Source: Bacteroidota bacterium
GTDB taxonomy: Bacteria; Bacteroidota; Bacteroidia; Chitinophagales; Saprospiraceae
Direction of reading: 5' to 3'
NCBI GenBank assembly: GCA_963169455.1
Contig: CAUJDW010000103.1
Coordinates: forward strand, 124,001-188,000
DNA length: 64,000 nt
This document shows, in pieces, positions 11,272-18,727 of this stretch (position 1 is the stretch's first letter; each line of letters opens with the position of its first letter). The notes under the pieces are model-generated. The model saw only the letters and a program-made list of their open reading frames with translations, was not told the DNA's origin and did not search any database. Position numbers and translations under genes: made by a program.

Positions 11272-11586
11272 CTAATTTTCCTGTTTTTCCAGGAAGGAGC
11301 GGATGGCGCCCACTGCATCGTTCAGCTTTTCATAATCGATGCTGTAGTGGATGTACTTGCCGTCGCGTTGCGTGTTGACAAGGCCCACCTGGCGCAGGAT
11401 GCGCAGGTGCTGGGAGGTAATGGACTGCTCGAGGTTCAGCGTGTTGTATATCTTGTTCACGTTGATCTCCTCGTTGCGGTCGATAAACTCGAGGATTTTC
11501 ATTCGGAGGGGATGGGCGATGGCCCGGAGAATCTCCGAGGAGGTGTGAAGCCTCTCACTGTTAATGCTTACCTTAGTTTTTCTCAT
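11272..11586 (-). CDS. ArsR-family winged-helix repressor (copy 1)
   Basis: This 104-residue protein has the ArsR/SmtB fold: AIAHPLRMKILEFIDR (helices 1-2), VNKIYNTLNLEQSITSQHL (helix-turn-helix), then the wing RDGKYIHYSID. The metal-binding Cys motif of ArsR/SmtB (ELCVC type) is absent; the recognition region reads LNLEQSITSQHLR. The inducer is therefore unknown and may not be a metal. It is about 300 bases downstream of a paralogue on the same strand, and the two are separated by a strong terminator, so they are separate transcripts. Autoregulation is usual in the family. No effector gene is adjacent. Confidence 0.88.
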   Translation of the reverse strand: MRKTKVSINSERLHTSSEILRAIAHPLRMKILEFIDRNEEINVNKIYNTLNLEQSITSQHLRILRQVGLVNTQRDGKYIHYSIDYEKLNDAVGAIRSFLEKQEN

Positions 11587-11877: not shown

Positions 11878-12216
11878 TCAGATGGTCAGTTCGTCAACCA
11901 GGCGGGATATTTGCGCCAGGCGGCCTTTATTCAGGGAATAGTGGATGAACTTGCCCTGGCGCTCCGTATCCACGACACCCGCGCGGCGCAGGATGGCGAG
12001 GTGTTGCGAAGCGACGGACTGCTCCAGCCTGAGCTTGATATAGATATCCGTGACGGTAAGGCTATCGCTTTCTTCCAGCAGGTCGATGATGCGCTGGCGA
12101 AGTTTATGGTTGACGGCCCTCAGTACCAGCACAGCCTTTCTAAGCTCGGCGTAGTCGAGTTTGATATCGGCTTCTCCCTTTTTTAGGATGACGGTTTCGT
12201 TTTTCTGTTTTCTCAT
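11878..12216 (-). CDS. ArsR-family winged-helix repressor (copy 2)
   Basis: This 112-residue paralogue of the 11272-11586 protein shows AVNHKLRQRIIDLLEE, VTDIYIKLRLEQSVASQHL and the wing RQGKFIHYSLN, the same pattern as its neighbour (RLEQSVASQHLAILRRAG against NLEQSITSQHLRILRQVG). It too lacks the ArsR/SmtB Cys metal motif. The N-terminus is longer and Lys/Glu-rich. A TAATTTTG box lies upstream on the minus strand (12324-12331). It is probably a DNA-binding dimer that represses an unidentified target. Tandem duplication followed by divergence is the simplest explanation for the pair. Confidence 0.88.
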   Translation of the reverse strand: MRKQKNETVILKKGEADIKLDYAELRKAVLVLRAVNHKLRQRIIDLLEESDSLTVTDIYIKLRLEQSVASQHLAILRRAGVVDTERQGKFIHYSLNKGRLAQISRLVDELTI

Positions 12217-13676: not shown

Positions 13677-13956
13677 GCCCCTGGCCTGCCGGTATCAGGC
13701 GAAGGCCGGATGGCCTATGTCTGCGCTTTGGGCTTTTCACCCCTTGCCCACCCTTGTTTTGCCTTTTTAATCAAAATTTAAGTGCCTTTTAACCGCGGCC
13801 CTCAGCGGTATTTAACCGGCTGTTAATCCTGCCTTCTTAACTTCTGTATTGGTTCCAGGCAACTCAGTTACCCCAACCAAACCGTTAACCTGCTCAGGCA
13901 GGGCGGAGGGCAAGGGAACCGGCCCCCGCGCCCTGTCCGGGCGCAAACCCATGTTT
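13677..13956. other. Upstream region of the paralogue cassette
   Basis: This 280-base gap lies between prfA and the first cassette gene. It is relatively AT-rich in 13740-13860 and contains no exact TAnnTTTG box, so the cassette promoter is not identified. Open reading continues upstream of the first cassette gene in its frame, but the extra residues (rich in Gly, Pro and Arg) do not look like protein and are not shared by the paralogues. Confidence 0.4.
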
Positions 13957-14388
13957 ATGGCACGCTTACTTTTTGAAGAATTGTTCCCGATGTTCAGAAT
14001 CGAGGGCGATGCCGTGATCTTTGACGGCGAGACGCCGTTCAAAGGCAACTACCACATCCTGAAGACGGACCAGGAATACTGGGTCAGATTCAAGTGGACA
14101 CAGGAAGGCGACATGTGCTACGCCATGGCCGGAAACTGGAAAGTGAACCTGTTCTTCGAAGAAATGGGCTACAAGGAAGAAGTATTCCAGCCCGAAACGA
14201 CGGTGAAGTTTGTCGATGAGCCGGGCTTTACCTATGATGTCAGGCTCCGGGTCGATGCCCGCACACTGGGCGCCGGCATATACAGGGTTGTCGGCCGCAT
14301 CCTGTTCGAAAACCCCGAAGGGATACCGATGCCGATCGCTGCCTTCGGCGACCTTGGCATGATCGAAGTGTACGAAGCTGCGTTCTAA
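13957..14388 (+). CDS. Cassette paralogue A, unknown small protein with P-M-P-I-A-x-F-x-D motif
   Basis: I do not recognise this 143-residue family. The start at 13957 (MARLLFEELFPMF) is chosen because it aligns without gaps with paralogue C (MAKVQYEEFLPRF); ATG at 13951 is an alternative. Features shared with B and C are FKWTQEGDMCYAM (W-[TS]-Q-x-G-x-x-C-[YH]), GNWKVNLFFEEMG, then LGAGIYRVVGRILFENPEG and PMPIAAFGDLGMIEVYEA. The pattern of alternating hydrophobic strands suggests a beta-sandwich. There is no signal peptide or membrane segment, so it is probably cytoplasmic. The single shared Cys and the acidic Glu-Glu-Met-Gly turn are candidate functional sites. It heads a four-gene same-strand cassette with a DUF1508-like gene. 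Confidence 0.75.
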   Translation: MARLLFEELFPMFRIEGDAVIFDGETPFKGNYHILKTDQEYWVRFKWTQEGDMCYAMAGNWKVNLFFEEMGYKEEVFQPETTVKFVDEPGFTYDVRLRVDARTLGAGIYRVVGRILFENPEGIPMPIAAFGDLGMIEVYEAAF

Positions 14389-14404
14389 ACCGGGAGAGCT
14401 TTGG

Positions 14405-14438
14405 GCAACGGAGCTCCGGCCTGAAGGCCGGCTGTTGC
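14405..14438 (+). promoter_or_regulatory. Hairpin between cassette paralogue A and the DUF1508-like gene
   Basis: Nested complementary segments GCAAC (14405-14409) with GTTGC (14434-14438) and CCGGCC (14416-14421) with GGCCGG (14426-14431) enclose a TGAA loop. There is no T-run, so it is more likely an mRNA stability or attenuation element inside the cassette than a full terminator. Confidence 0.4.
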
Positions 14439-14470
14439 CTGAGATGCTTTTCACCACAAAAACTGAGGCA

Positions 14471-15445
14471 ATGCTTTCCCAAAAAGAAAAATATGATTTT
14501 TCCCAGCCTTCATCCAGTGGGAAAGCGGGCTTTGAATCCTTTCGGAGTGACAAAGATGGCCTGTATTACTTCCACTTCAACGACGCGGAAGGGCTGGCGC
14601 TGCTGTTCAGCCAGGGCTATTCCAGCATGAAGAGTTGTAAGAACGGGCTGCAGTCCCTGGAAAACAATATCGGATTGCGGGAAAGGCTGGATTATCACAC
14701 CGAGGGGAAAGCCCACTTTTTCACGGTTAAAGCCGGCAACAAGCAGGAGATAGCCAGAAGCCGGCTCTTCGAATCCGAAGGGGAGATGGAAAAAGCCATC
14801 GGGTTTATCCTGGAGGAAGTAAGAGGAGCGGCGCCGGCTGTAGCCCGCGCAGTGCCTGCGGCCACTGCCGTGGCGGAGGAAGAGGCGCCTGCCGGCCCTT
14901 CGAAGTTCAGTTTCCGCCTCGATTTCTACAAGCCCGGCGCAGAAGAACCGCTGCGGGGCAGGATCGAGTACGCCCTGAACAGGGAGGACAAGCTTGCTTT
15001 TGAAGGGGTCGATCTGGACAAGATCGCGAACTTCCTCGCCAGCCACCTGCCTGCAGAAGGCAAAGCGGCCCTTGAAACGGCAAGGCCCCGCGACTGGAAG
15101 GCAGAGGAGGCCGAAGTTCGCATCCTCCGTGAAGGGTCGCCGGCCGAAAGCCCCATTTTCAGCAGCGATGCTGCATTTGAGGTACAGATGAAAGTTGACG
15201 CCAGAAAGGAGAAGGCCGAAGCCATACCCTATGAACTCCAGGTTTACGCCCACTCGCTGGAAGAAGGGAGCTGGGTGCTGGTAGGGGAAAAAGAGGGCCG
15301 CCTGCCTCAGACGGGGCGGGCTTCAGCCCCGGTGATGGCCATGGCCCTGCACCCCGGCGCTTATCGCCTGGTGGCCACGCTCAAACTGCACGAGAAGGAG
15401 CGGGACACCCGGATCAGAGGGAGCCGGCTGATACAGGTTTGCTGA
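14471..15445 (+). CDS. DUF1508 (YegP-like) repeat protein with a C-terminal cassette-type domain
   Basis: This 324-residue protein has two regions. Residues about 15-115 hold two DUF1508-like units: KDGLYYFHFNDAEGLALLFS with GYSSMKSCKNGLQSLENN, and KAHFFTVKAGNKQEIARSR with a matching helix. These follow the YegP pattern (F-x-x-K-A-x-N-x-E...S-x-x-Y-x-S-x-x-x-x-x-x-G-I). An Ala-rich linker follows, then a C-terminal region of about 180 residues ending in ALHPGAYRLVATLKLHEKE, which resembles the L-x-P-G-x-[YF]-R strand of the three neighbouring small proteins. The start ATG at 14471 has GAGG four bases upstream; TTG 14435 and ATG 14444 are alternatives. It is probably cytoplasmic. The function is unknown. 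Confidence 0.75.
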   Translation: MLSQKEKYDFSQPSSSGKAGFESFRSDKDGLYYFHFNDAEGLALLFSQGYSSMKSCKNGLQSLENNIGLRERLDYHTEGKAHFFTVKAGNKQEIARSRLFESEGEMEKAIGFILEEVRGAAPAVARAVPAATAVAEEEAPAGPSKFSFRLDFYKPGAEEPLRGRIEYALNREDKLAFEGVDLDKIANFLASHLPAEGKAALETARPRDWKAEEAEVRILREGSPAESPIFSSDAAFEVQMKVDARKEKAEAIPYELQVYAHSLEEGSWVLVGEKEGRLPQTGRASAPVMAMALHPGAYRLVATLKLHEKERDTRIRGSRLIQVC

Positions 15446-15497
15446 ATTTGAGCAGGCAAAGCTCAAGGTGATTTTTAAAAAAAATAAAACATTACTT

Positions 15498-15944
15498 ATG
15501 CCTGAATGCAAAATTAATGTCGAGGGCCCGGTTCCCATCGTATACAACAGCTACCTGGTCTGGATGGAGGGAGGCTCGCCCAGCCTACCCAAAGCAGATC
15601 GGGCCGATATCATCCAGGTTGGAAAAGATGTCTCCGTTCTGGTAAAATGGAGCCAGCGGGGGCCATTGTGTTATGCTTTGGATGGGTACTGGACGGTGGG
15701 CCTACTTTTTGAAAAGATGGGAAGCGGAGAAACCGCTTATGCTCCCGAAGTGAAGGCAAGGTTTGTCCGCAAACCTGATTATGAAAATGAGGTAAGGATC
15801 AACGTGGACACCAATGCTCTCGGGCCCGGCCTGTTCAGAGCCTTGCTGTTCCTCCGGTTTGCCAGCCCCGAGGGCGTACCTCTGCCCATTGCAGGTTTTG
15901 CCGACATTGGATTCGTCGAACTCTATGAAGCCCGTTTCCCCTGA
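15498..15944 (+). CDS. Cassette paralogue B, unknown small protein
   Basis: This 148-residue member belongs to the same family as the proteins at 13957 and 16045, but is more divergent at its N-terminus (MPECKINVEGPVPIVYNSYL). Shared motifs are VKWSQRGPLCYALDGYWTVG, LLFEKMGSGE, LGPGLFRALLFLRFASPEG and PLPIAGFADIGFVELYEA. The start ATG at 15498 is preferred to an in-frame GTG at 15468, which would add a Lys-rich leader. It lies 52 bases after the DUF1508-like gene, on the same strand and probably the same transcript. An extra N-terminal Cys (Cys4) is not present in A or C. The function is unknown. Confidence 0.75.
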   Translation: MPECKINVEGPVPIVYNSYLVWMEGGSPSLPKADRADIIQVGKDVSVLVKWSQRGPLCYALDGYWTVGLLFEKMGSGETAYAPEVKARFVRKPDYENEVRINVDTNALGPGLFRALLFLRFASPEGVPLPIAGFADIGFVELYEARFP

Positions 15945-16044
15945 AGTGTACCGGCAGGGAAAGGCGGGGAAAATTCTTTAACTAAGGGATGGGGGTTTTT
16001 GGAAACACCATTTTCAAGGCCCCTGTGCCTCAAAAACAAAAACC

Positions 16045-16467
16045 ATGGCAAAAGTACAATATGAGGAATTCCTTCCGAGGTTTGGCATCGATGGCGATAT
16101 CAGCTTCTGGTCGGAAGAAAAGCCCCTGATGGGCGCGCCCCTGATCCTGAAAGTGGGCCAAAAGTACGCCGTGAAATTCGAATGGACGCAACTGGGCAAC
16201 CTCTGCCATGTGCTCAACGGCAACTGGGTGTGCCAGGTCTATTTTGAACAAATGGGGCCCGGCGAAGAATTTGTCCAGCCCCTCAAGAAAGTGCCGTTTG
16301 TGCGCAAGCCGGGCTATAAGTACACTGTAGAGCTCGAGCTGCCGGTTGCCGATGTCGGCCCGGGCGTTTACCGGGCAGTGGCCGAAATCCTGTTCGAAGA
16401 CCCGAAAGGCCGGCCGATGCCGATCGCCGCTTTTGCCGACCTGGGTTGGCTGCACGTCTATCGGTAA
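16045..16467 (+). CDS. Cassette paralogue C, unknown small protein
   Basis: This 140-residue protein aligns essentially without gaps with paralogue A: MAKVQYEEFLPRFGIDGD, FEWTQLGNLCHVLNGNWV, YFEQMGPGEEFVQP, VGPGVYRAVAEILFEDPKG and PMPIAAFADLGWLHVYR. It ends a few residues earlier than A and B. No export signal is seen. It lies 100 bases after B and is followed by a clear terminator at 16528-16575, which marks the end of the cassette. High similarity of A and C with a more distant B suggests successive duplications, with the DUF1508-like gene held between A and B. Confidence 0.75.
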   Translation: MAKVQYEEFLPRFGIDGDISFWSEEKPLMGAPLILKVGQKYAVKFEWTQLGNLCHVLNGNWVCQVYFEQMGPGEEFVQPLKKVPFVRKPGYKYTVELELPVADVGPGVYRAVAEILFEDPKGRPMPIAAFADLGWLHVYR

Positions 16468-16527: not shown

Positions 16528-16575
16528 ACAGGAGCCGTCTCCGAATGCATTCGGGATGGCTCCTGTGTTTTTGGG
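16528..16575. terminator. Terminator ending the paralogue cassette
   Basis: Arms ACAGGAGCC (16528-16536) and GGCTCCTGT (16558-16566) are perfectly complementary, and a second short palindrome CCGAATGCATTCGG lies inside the loop. GTTTTTGGGG follows. It sits between the convergent cassette and the small zinc-ribbon gene, so it may serve both. Confidence 0.7.
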
Positions 16576-16584
16576 GTATTATGC

Positions 16585-16812
16585 CTAGTTGGGATTGAAC
16601 TGCCCGGGGTTGATGCCGGTGGGCAGGTGCGAGCCGCTGTGCATGACGTACGTGCTGCCGCCGCTGACTTTCATATCGCCGGTTTTCCAGTTGAGCCGGC
16701 GCGTGTAATCACACTGCGGGCAGTGGAAGATGATCCAGTCCCCTTCCCGCCGGCTGTCGCACTGGTGTTGCTCCATCTCGTCCCGATGGTGGAAATCGAA
16801 ATTTAAAGACAT
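16585..16812 (-). CDS. Small zinc-ribbon-like protein, 75 residues
   Basis: This small protein is not recognised. It contains HQCDSRREGDWIIFHCPQCD, giving a Cys plus a C-x2-C knuckle, with several His residues nearby (FHHRDEMEQHQC), consistent with binding one zinc ion. The second half is Gly/Ser/Pro-rich (SGGSTYVMHSGSHLPTG) and looks flexible. The reading frame shows typical codon use, starts at ATG 16812 and ends next to the cassette terminator. Zinc-ribbon proteins of this size often bind nucleic acids or a larger protein. It faces the cassette, so a functional link is possible but not shown. Confidence 0.65.
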   Translation of the reverse strand: MSLNFDFHHRDEMEQHQCDSRREGDWIIFHCPQCDYTRRLNWKTGDMKVSGGSTYVMHSGSHLPTGINPGQFNPN

Positions 16813-17209: not shown

Positions 17210-18727
17210 ATGCAAGTAAACAACCCCCCGAGGAAGGTTGCCGTTTTTGGTGGAGAGGTAGAAGAGGTAGAGCGCATTCTGGAACTCATTCCCGCCGGAT
17301 ATGAGATTGAGAAAGCTCCTGTTATGCGCCCATCCGGCAAAACCTCCGGGCAGGAGCGGCCGGCCCTGGCCATTGTGTTGAACGGAAATGCTCCTCCCGG
17401 CGGCTGGCGTGCGCTTCGGAAGGCCATTGAAAAATGCGGCGGCGCGCCGGTGCTGGCCGTTGCGCCCCGGCCATCATGCCGGGAGGTCATTGAAGCATTT
17501 CGGGCGGGAGCGAGCGATTTTCTGGTTTATCCACCGCCGGAAGAAGAATTCCGGGCGGTTTTTTATCGCCTTGTGGAAAAGGCCGGGCCAAGAGAAGGCG
17601 TAAATAGCGGCCCGGATTTTTGTAAGCAGGCGGGGGGGGCTGATTCCACAAGCAAGGATGATTTTTATGATGATCATAAAAGTAATGATTATGGCTGCAG
17701 CGAAGGCAGGGGCAGCGATTGTCAATATAATGACATTGCGCTCAATGAGTTTGGCCGCTCCGTTCCCGCTTTGCTTCCCATACAAAGGCCGGCCCGCCTT
17801 GTAGCCTGGTTCGGGCGGCTGAAAAAGTGGCTCTGGCATGCGCCTGCCCGGACTTTGGATCCGGGAGCAGGCCTGTTTTCGCTGCCCGGGCCGGAGTATG
17901 AGGGCCCGGCATCGGAAGCTGGAGGCATCCCTTCTGCAGTTTCAATAAACGATAAACAGCCCGGCCTGTCTGTTTCCCTTTTCGGCCCGATGGCCGTATT
18001 CGTCAATGGCCGGCCTTTGAAAAGGCTGCCCGGGAAAAAGGTTAATGCGCTCCTGGCTTTTTTTCTTCACTACCACCAGAAGCCGGTTCACCGGGAAATA
18101 CTGATGGAAAAATTCTGGGGCGGACATTCCCCCTCCAGCGCCCGAAACTCCCTCAACGTGGCCGTTTATACGATCCGGAAGCACCTGCAAAAAGCCCTGC
18201 CGGACACCGACGTCCTCCTGTACGATAATGATTATTACCAGCTGAACCCCTGCCTGCACACCGTGACCGATGTGGAGCGTTTCCTGGCTTTCTGGAAACG
18301 CGGCCGGAACATTGAAGCCTCGCGCGGGCTGCCATTCGCCGTGGAACATTACCAGGAGGCTGCCCAATTGTATGCCGGGGACTTCCTTAGCGGGTTCCAT
18401 TACGAGGAATGGTGCGAATCGGAGCGCGACAACCTCAAGGAAACCTACCTCTTTATCCTCGAAAGGCTCTGCACTTATGCTTTCCAGCAGGCGGATTACC
18501 AGGCCGTGGCCGGAATGTGCGCCCGGATGCTTCAAAAAGACCCCTGCCTGGAAGAAATCCACCGCAAGCTTATCGTTGCCTACTACCGGTTGGGCCAACG
18601 TGACAAGGCCGTGCGCCAGTACTACAAATGTATCGATGTGCTTCGCCGGGAACTGGATATGGGCCCCTCTCCCCAAACACTGGCGCTCTTCGGCCGGATC
18701 AGAAAAGGCGAGCTGGGCGTGGTTTGA
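17210..18727 (+). CDS. BTAD (SARP-type) transcriptional regulator with a pseudo-receiver domain
   Basis: This 505-residue cytoplasmic regulator has three parts. Residues about 8-125 resemble a response-regulator receiver (VAVFGGEVEEVERIL..., RAGASDFLVYPPPEEEF), but the phospho-acceptor position at the end of strand 3 is Asn58 (AIVLNGNAPPGGW) and the conserved K-P is Y-P-P, so phosphorylation is unlikely. A polar Asp/Asn/Ser-rich linker follows (about 140-180). From about residue 252 an OmpR-like winged helix appears (LFGPMAVFVNGRPLKRLPGK... SARNSLNVAVYTIRKHLQ), then a bacterial transcriptional activation domain of TPR-like helices from about 350 to the end (ELDMGPSPQTLALFGRI). SARP-like proteins activate nearby operons. 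The cassette at 13957-16467 is the nearest unusual candidate target, which is inference only. Confidence 0.85.
   Translation: MQVNNPPRKVAVFGGEVEEVERILELIPAGYEIEKAPVMRPSGKTSGQERPALAIVLNGNAPPGGWRALRKAIEKCGGAPVLAVAPRPSCREVIEAFRAGASDFLVYPPPEEEFRAVFYRLVEKAGPREGVNSGPDFCKQAGGADSTSKDDFYDDHKSNDYGCSEGRGSDCQYNDIALNEFGRSVPALLPIQRPARLVAWFGRLKKWLWHAPARTLDPGAGLFSLPGPEYEGPASEAGGIPSAVSINDKQPGLSVSLFGPMAVFVNGRPLKRLPGKKVNALLAFFLHYHQKPVHREILMEKFWGGHSPSSARNSLNVAVYTIRKHLQKALPDTDVLLYDNDYYQLNPCLHTVTDVERFLAFWKRGRNIEASRGLPFAVEHYQEAAQLYAGDFLSGFHYEEWCESERDNLKETYLFILERLCTYAFQQADYQAVAGMCARMLQKDPCLEEIHRKLIVAYYRLGQRDKAVRQYYKCIDVLRRELDMGPSPQTLALFGRIRKGELGVV

What the first reader, a model, noticed from the sequence alone, without database searches (positions are those of the whole stretch)
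13957..16467. Undescribed-looking cassette of three tandem paralogues around a DUF1508-like gene
Seen directly: proteins A (13957), B (15498) and C (16045), of 140-148 residues, share W-[TS]-Q-x-G-x-x-C-[YH], an F-E-x-M-G turn, G-x-[YF]-R and P-[ML]-P-I-A-[AG]-F-x-D-[LI]-G, with a DUF1508-like gene between A and B. All four are on one strand, a hairpin lies after A and a terminator after C. I cannot name the family. No nuclease, protease or transporter motif is seen. The proteins look cytoplasmic and beta-rich, and the invariant Cys could be functional. A cassette kept with three paralogues suggests a multi-subunit or diversified system.
Basis: partly seen in the sequence, partly recalled or inferred. 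Interest (0 to 1): 0.8.

Follow-up and report, generated by a model that had tools for sequence, protein, structure and literature searches.

The report
Unnamed four-gene module with repeat-array promoter
Some Saprospiraceae-type bacteria carry an unnamed, self-contained gene set: a dedicated switch protein, a promoter with several near-identical 11-base steps that the switch probably grips, and three kinds of cytoplasmic proteins of unknown job that travel together across genomes.

Summary
The cassette is real and larger than described. A, B and C are homologues with no Pfam, NCBIfam, PADLOC or PDB-sequence match; AlphaFold gives an Ig-like beta-sandwich (pLDDT 93). Relatives show one module of four families: the A-family, a DUF1508 protein whose C-terminal domain has an A-like fold, a 75-residue Zn-ribbon-like protein (16585-16812, minus) and a BTAD regulator with a degenerate receiver (17210-18727). 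A occurs in 26 of 199 family genomes and co-occurs with the others (p from 2e-15 to 1e-22); flanks vary. Upstream of A lies an array of 3-7 direct repeats (core TTAAG[CT]) with an 11-bp period (z=27.6), ending 10 nt before the TTTG of the -7 box in 19 of 25 promoters. The two module loci are the top two array hits in this genome; A genes in genomes lacking the regulator have none. I read it as a dedicated SARP-like activator/operator circuit (binding inferred). The Zn-ribbon-like protein ends in Asn in 20 of 22 module copies. The biochemical function of the products is unknown.

The parts
13765..13831 (+). Array of six units (starts 13765, 13776, 13787, 13799, 13810, 13821; the fourth is poor) of an 11-bp direct repeat with core TTWAA[GTC][CT]; likely operator of the module regulator
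   Evidence: best array in the 64-kb window (leave-one-out score 40.3, next 12.0; block-shuffled windows at most 17.6); top hit in the genome
13838..13845 (+). Probable degenerate -7 element (TAACTTCT against TAnnTTTG), same geometry as in relatives
   Evidence: for geometry in relatives; consensus from PMC7366714. In the window itself the match is weak
13957..14388 (+). Gene A, Ig-like beta-sandwich family protein
14393..14452 (+). Hairpin between A and the DUF1508 gene; possible partial attenuator or processing site
   Evidence: z=-2.7
14471..15445 (+). DUF1508 gene: two YegP/UPF0339-like repeats (residues about 18-120), low-confidence linker, small alpha/beta region (about 147-195), Ig-like C-terminal domain (about 210-324)
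15498..15944 (+). Gene B, A-family paralogue
16045..16467 (+). Gene C, A-family paralogue
16528..16572 (.). Hairpin followed by a T-run between the convergent genes C and the Zn-ribbon-like gene; terminator
   Evidence: z=-4.7 on plus, -4.3 on minus
16585..16812 (-). 75-residue Zn-ribbon-like protein (H-x-C ... C-x2-C ... H) ending in Asn
   Evidence: in 20/199 family genomes; C-terminal Asn in 20 of 22 module copies
17210..18727 (+). Regulator: degenerate receiver domain, OmpR-type winged helix, BTAD
   Evidence: PF03704 7e-28, PF00486 7e-8; N-terminal region matches receivers, best 4e-13

Best explanation
This is a self-contained regulated module. The BTAD regulator (degenerate receiver + winged helix + BTAD) binds head-to-tail along an array of 11-bp direct repeats that ends about 10 nt upstream of the TTTG of the -7 box of the A promoter, so that the last repeat sits near the -33 region, and switches on the A-DUF1508(-B-C) operon, its main and perhaps only target. 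The products are small cytoplasmic Ig-like proteins (A, B, C) and a larger protein that carries a domain of a similar fold; they probably bind each other. The Zn-ribbon-like protein, transcribed divergently from the regulator, is the likely modulator; its conserved C-terminal Asn suggests that its free C-terminus is docked, possibly in the regulator's TPR-like BTAD domain. Shown: linkage, array, geometry, predicted folds, receiver degeneration, C-terminal Asn. Inferred: DNA binding, activation, the protein complex, the role of the Zn-ribbon-like protein. The biochemical task of the products is not known.
For: Co-occurrence over 199 genomes: A with full-length DUF1508 p=3e-21, with the long BTAD subfamily 1e-22, with the Zn-ribbon-like protein 2e-15; gene neighbourhood kept with unrelated flanks. 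Period: TTWA pairs at 11 bp 58 against 3.3 in shuffles (z=27.6), with peaks at 22, 33 and 44. Leave-one-out: the best array of the locus lies upstream of A in 22 of 25 loci; in L069 it lies at the divergent DUF1508 promoter. Where A and DUF1508 are divergent (L022, L069, L074, L081) both promoters carry arrays. Genome-wide the two module loci are the top two hits in this genome; four genomes without the regulator give only noise. No array at the three A genes in genomes without the regulator (L067, L068, L075). TTTG 10 nt after the last unit in 19 of 25. Known SARP operators are heptamers plus 4-nt spacers = 11 bp (PMC5930380). Array and regulator are also together in a Calditrichota MAG (L140). 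The Ig-like folds of A and of the DUF1508 C-terminus match many of the same PDB chains; hhalign E=8e-6, probability 84%.
Against: No binding or expression data. Some 11-bp arrays elsewhere in these genomes lie beside ordinary OmpR-type response-regulator genes (L183, L185), so the repeat type is not unique to this regulator. G481 keeps an array although its only regulator remnant lacks the winged helix. Arrays are weak in L071, L072 and L080. The Zn-ribbon-like gene is missing from some module genomes (G610, G459, G019) and two copies end in Tyr or Ser. In the window the -7 box is a poor match. The PWM was trained on A promoters, although the period test does not use it and the leave-one-out test guards against it.
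Confidence: 0.65

Rival explanations
1. The array is the operator of a different OmpR-family response regulator; the linked BTAD protein acts elsewhere or only as a co-factor.
For: Similar 11-bp arrays occur next to OmpR-type response-regulator genes in the same genomes; OmpR-type winged helices in general use such spacing (own knowledge).
Against: The strong arrays follow the module regulator: present with it, absent at A genes of genomes lacking it, and found with it in another phylum. The two module loci are the top two hits of the genome.
Confidence: 0.15
2. The repeats are phased A/T tracts that bend the promoter or act as an UP element, not a protein operator.
For: The core is A/T-rich and helically phased.
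Against: The unit contains a central TpA step and constrained positions beyond the A/T core (G/T then C/T, about 0.57 bits each), is strand-asymmetric, and the period is 11.0 (11, 22, 33, 44) rather than 10.5.
Confidence: 0.05
3. The module is an anti-phage or other conflict system in which A-family proteins are sensors or adaptors.
For: A stand-alone A gene lies beside a CHAT-like gene and an nSTAND1 NTPase gene (L068); one module lies near caspase-type and subtilase genes (L019). Sporadic distribution.
Against: No PADLOC match except a weak TPR hit; no toxin or effector is constant among the neighbours; not found in viral contigs or plasmids.
Confidence: 0.12
4. The products are structural: Ig-like proteins made in bulk that polymerise into a cytoplasmic assembly, with the regulator controlling dose.
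For: Several Ig-like domains encoded in one operon, duplicated independently in several lineages; a hairpin after A could set stoichiometry. A scaffolding protein, RbmA, is among the structural matches.
Against: Ig-like folds are generic and the structural matches are not specific; nothing here shows polymerisation.
Confidence: 0.15
5. The module is an accessory of an extracellular contractile injection system.
For: In L021 (G029) it lies beside sheath, spike-tip, eCIS-core and AAA genes.
Against: The spike-tip family occurs in 1 of 199 genomes, G029 only, while the module occurs in over 20.
Confidence: 0.02

Closest known systems
SARP/BTAD regulators such as PimR (PMC5930380)
   Same: OmpR-type winged helix followed by BTAD; operator of direct repeats with an 11-bp period; PimR also has a unique target gene
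   Different: Degenerate receiver domain in front; 3-7 repeats instead of 2-3; found in Bacteroidota and a Calditrichota MAG with no recurring biosynthetic neighbour; different core sequence
DUF1508 / UPF0339 (YegP, PF07411)
   Same: The N-terminal repeats have the YegP fold (Z 14) and PF07411 matches
   Different: Here fused to an alpha/beta region and an Ig-like domain; the repeats are replaced by a coiled-coil-like stretch in L144
Generic Ig-like beta-sandwiches (Wzt carbohydrate-binding domain, RbmA, RhoGDI, arrestin)
   Same: Overall fold of A, Z 9-10
   Different: No sequence relation found; many unrelated proteins tie, so no function follows
Response-regulator receiver domains (best match PleD)
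   Same: The regulator's N-terminal region aligns to receivers (best E 4e-13)
   Different: The phospho-acceptor Asp is kept in only about 2 of 23 copies and the conserved Lys is mostly lost

Membership tests
SARP/BTAD-type regulator (window 17210-18727) | BTAD domain | tested here: met
   PF03704 E=7.4e-28 over the full 146 positions, above the cut-off
SARP/BTAD-type regulator (window 17210-18727) | OmpR-type winged helix before the BTAD | tested here: met
   PF00486 E=6.6e-8, above the cut-off
SARP/BTAD-type regulator (window 17210-18727) | Target promoter with direct repeats at 11 bp close to the -35 region | tested here: met
   Period z=27.6 and fixed distance to the -7 box; met at sequence level only
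SARP/BTAD-type regulator (window 17210-18727) | Binds the repeats and activates transcription | not testable with these tools
   Needs EMSA, footprinting and a knock-out
SARP/BTAD-type regulator (window 17210-18727) | Lies in a secondary-metabolite cluster | tested here: inconclusive
   No recurring biosynthetic neighbour in the shared-gene clustering; no dedicated cluster search was run
Phosphorylatable response regulator | Phospho-acceptor Asp and conserved Lys in the receiver | tested here: not met
   Alignment A9: Asn in the window protein, His, Tyr, Ile or others in most; Asp only in L069 and L137; L140 has Ser
DUF1508 / UPF0339 (gene 14471-15445) | PF07411 match and YegP fold | tested here: met
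   E=3.6e-12; Z 14.1 and 13.8 to 2k49 and 2k8e
Named family for A, B, C | Match to a Pfam, NCBIfam or PADLOC family above cut-off | tested here: not met
   None; no PDB sequence at E up to 1
Extracellular contractile injection system accessory | Co-occurs with eCIS core genes | tested here: not met
   Spike tip PF19267 in 1 of 199 genomes
Known anti-phage defence system | PADLOC-DB component models | tested here: not met
   Only a weak TPR hit on the regulator, E=1.3e-4

The most novel reading that the evidence does not exclude
A previously undescribed intracellular sensing device in which a small zinc-binding protein reports its state by docking its conserved C-terminal Asn (any preceding residue) into the TPR-like domain of a phosphorylation-independent regulator, which then fills a 3-7-step repeat array and sets the dose of Ig-like partner proteins.
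Probability: 0.15. Interest if true: 0.8.

Novelty: new variant of a known kind. Interest (0 to 1): 0.52.

Why it matters
It turns a set of hypothetical proteins into one module with a defined promoter and a likely dedicated regulator, so its function can be approached by switching it on or off. It extends SARP-like control, best known from Streptomyces antibiotic clusters, to Saprospiraceae and a Calditrichota MAG with longer repeat arrays. It also offers two sharp, testable oddities: repeat number as a possible dose setting, and a small Zn-ribbon-like protein whose last residue is conserved as Asn at the protein level.

Tried and rejected
Functional Cys: not conserved in the wider family. 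Link to contractile injection systems: one genome only; the sheath model PF04984 could not serve as a test, since it missed the G029 sheath at the threshold used. Defence system by PADLOC: no match. Specific fold match for A: Foldseek and VIA list many tied Ig-like proteins. Homologues on plasmids and in viral contigs: none found. A wider regulon: lower-ranked arrays in G000 and other genomes (near SulP/carbonic anhydrase, an RND efflux gene and an HpcH-type aldolase gene) have E-values at least 800-fold weaker than the module arrays of the same genome, and two of them lie beside ordinary OmpR-type regulators, so they are not claimed as targets. The first genome-contig scan with A, B and C alone found nothing; a wider alignment found 13 loci. 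Papers: DUF1508 is named in two held papers in passing, none on this module.

Full report
Observation. The four ORFs exist as described. A and C are 47% and A and B 38% identical, and the same genome holds a fourth, more distant copy on another contig. The DUF1508 assignment is right. A, B and C match no Pfam or NCBIfam family, no PADLOC model and no PDB sequence. The hairpin after A and the terminator after C are supported by folding.

The unit is larger. The second copy in this genome (G000:C7, L005) is an A-family gene followed by a DUF1508 gene and a BTAD regulator. In the window a BTAD regulator lies at 17210-18727 and, between it and C on the other strand, a 75-residue gene at 16585-16812. 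The same families recur together in relatives: 17 of the loci read here hold all four (A-family, DUF1508-type, Zn-ribbon-like, BTAD) and most others hold two or three, in varied orientation, while the flanking genes are not shared. Over 199 genomes of the family A occurs in 26, the full-length DUF1508 form in 21, the long BTAD subfamily in 22 and the Zn-ribbon-like protein in 20. One-sided Fisher tests give 3e-21, 1e-22 and 2e-15 for A with each; genomes are related, so these are guides, not exact probabilities. G475, which seemed to lack A, has a divergent one in place. Outside the family A was found in one genome of the phylum sample, alone in 98 genomes of that genome's class, and in a Calditrichota MAG with the regulator next to it.

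The proteins. A is predicted with pLDDT 93 as an Ig-like beta-sandwich, with many tied, non-specific structural matches. The DUF1508 protein consists of two YegP-like repeats (Z 14) and a C-terminal domain that matches many of the same Ig-like chains as A; profile comparison of the two gives E=8e-6, probability 84%. In L144 the DUF1508 repeats are replaced by a coiled-coil-like stretch while the C-terminal part remains, so the C-terminal part is the more constant one. A, B and C form a clade of their own (100/98), and G519/G598 hold a separate duplication.

The regulator. It has an OmpR-type winged helix and a BTAD domain. Its N-terminal region matches receiver domains (best E 4e-13), but the phospho-acceptor Asp is lost in nearly all copies, so it is probably not driven by phosphorylation.

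The operator. Upstream of A genes lie 3-7 direct repeats with core TTAAG[CT]. Pairs of TTWA at a distance of 11 occur 58 times in 26 promoters against 3.3 in dinucleotide shuffles, with further peaks at 22, 33 and 44. With the window and its sister locus left out of training, the window array scores 40.3, the next place in 64 kb 12.0, and the best of 40 block-shuffled windows 17.6. In 22 of 25 loci the best array of the whole locus is the one upstream of A, and where A and DUF1508 are divergent both promoters have one. In 19 of 25 promoters the TTTG of the -7 box (TAnnTTTG, PMC7366714) begins exactly 10 nt after the last unit. A model of the array finds the two module loci as the top two places in this 6.8-Mb genome; in four genomes without the regulator only noise is found, and A genes in genomes without the regulator have no array. 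Known SARP operators have the same 11-bp build (PMC5930380). Binding by the linked regulator is an inference: a few weaker arrays lie beside ordinary OmpR-type regulators, and G481 keeps an array although its regulator remnant, fused to the DUF1508 protein, lacks the winged helix.

The Zn-ribbon-like protein. It has conserved H-x-C, C-x2-C and His. Its last residue is Asn in 20 of 22 module-type copies, with AAT or AAC as codon and all three stop codons, and variable residues before it (Asn makes up 5% of these proteins). This points to selection on the protein's free C-terminus. TPR domains elsewhere can clamp C-terminal carboxylates (own knowledge), which suggests the BTAD domain as the dock; this was not tested.

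Verdict. A real, unnamed module with a well-supported regulatory design and unknown biochemical output. The circuit works like a single-target SARP system; the sequence features of the BTAD regulator family are met, activation is not tested. I rate it a new variant of a known kind, interest 0.52.

Noticed in passing
L021 687-5791 (G029:C42): eCIS genes (eCIS core, AAA, spike tip, sheath C-terminal domain) lie directly beside the module in this genome only.
   Followed up: yes
L064 10093-11373 (G481): In-frame fusion of the DUF1508 protein with the second half of the BTAD regulator; the winged helix is lost but the promoter array upstream of A is kept. It may be a deletion or a hint that the two proteins touch.
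   Followed up: partly
Family genomes, (e.g. G034:C121, G488:C176, G549:C209): Very large ORFs (over 1000 residues) with several DUF1508 matches are common in this family, apart from the module.
   Followed up: no
L183 6498-6562, L185 8699-8759: Weaker 11-bp TTTAA-type arrays upstream of a SulP transporter/carbonic anhydrase pair and an RND efflux gene, beside OmpR-type response regulators.
   Followed up: partly
L135 9793-9993, L138 181-381: A side branch of the Zn-ribbon-like protein without A or regulator nearby; it ends in Arg, not Asn.
   Followed up: partly
L068 5828-10484: A stand-alone A-family gene next to a CHAT-like gene and an nSTAND1 NTPase gene, without array or BTAD regulator.
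   Followed up: partly
L073 3794-5836 (G477): A second array (score 26) precedes a 658-residue gene of unassigned function just upstream of the module; a possible extra target.
   Followed up: no
window 11272-11586 and 11878-12216, minus strand: Two neighbouring small ArsR-like regulators upstream of prfA; a similar gene precedes the module in L133, but no general link was tested.
   Followed up: no
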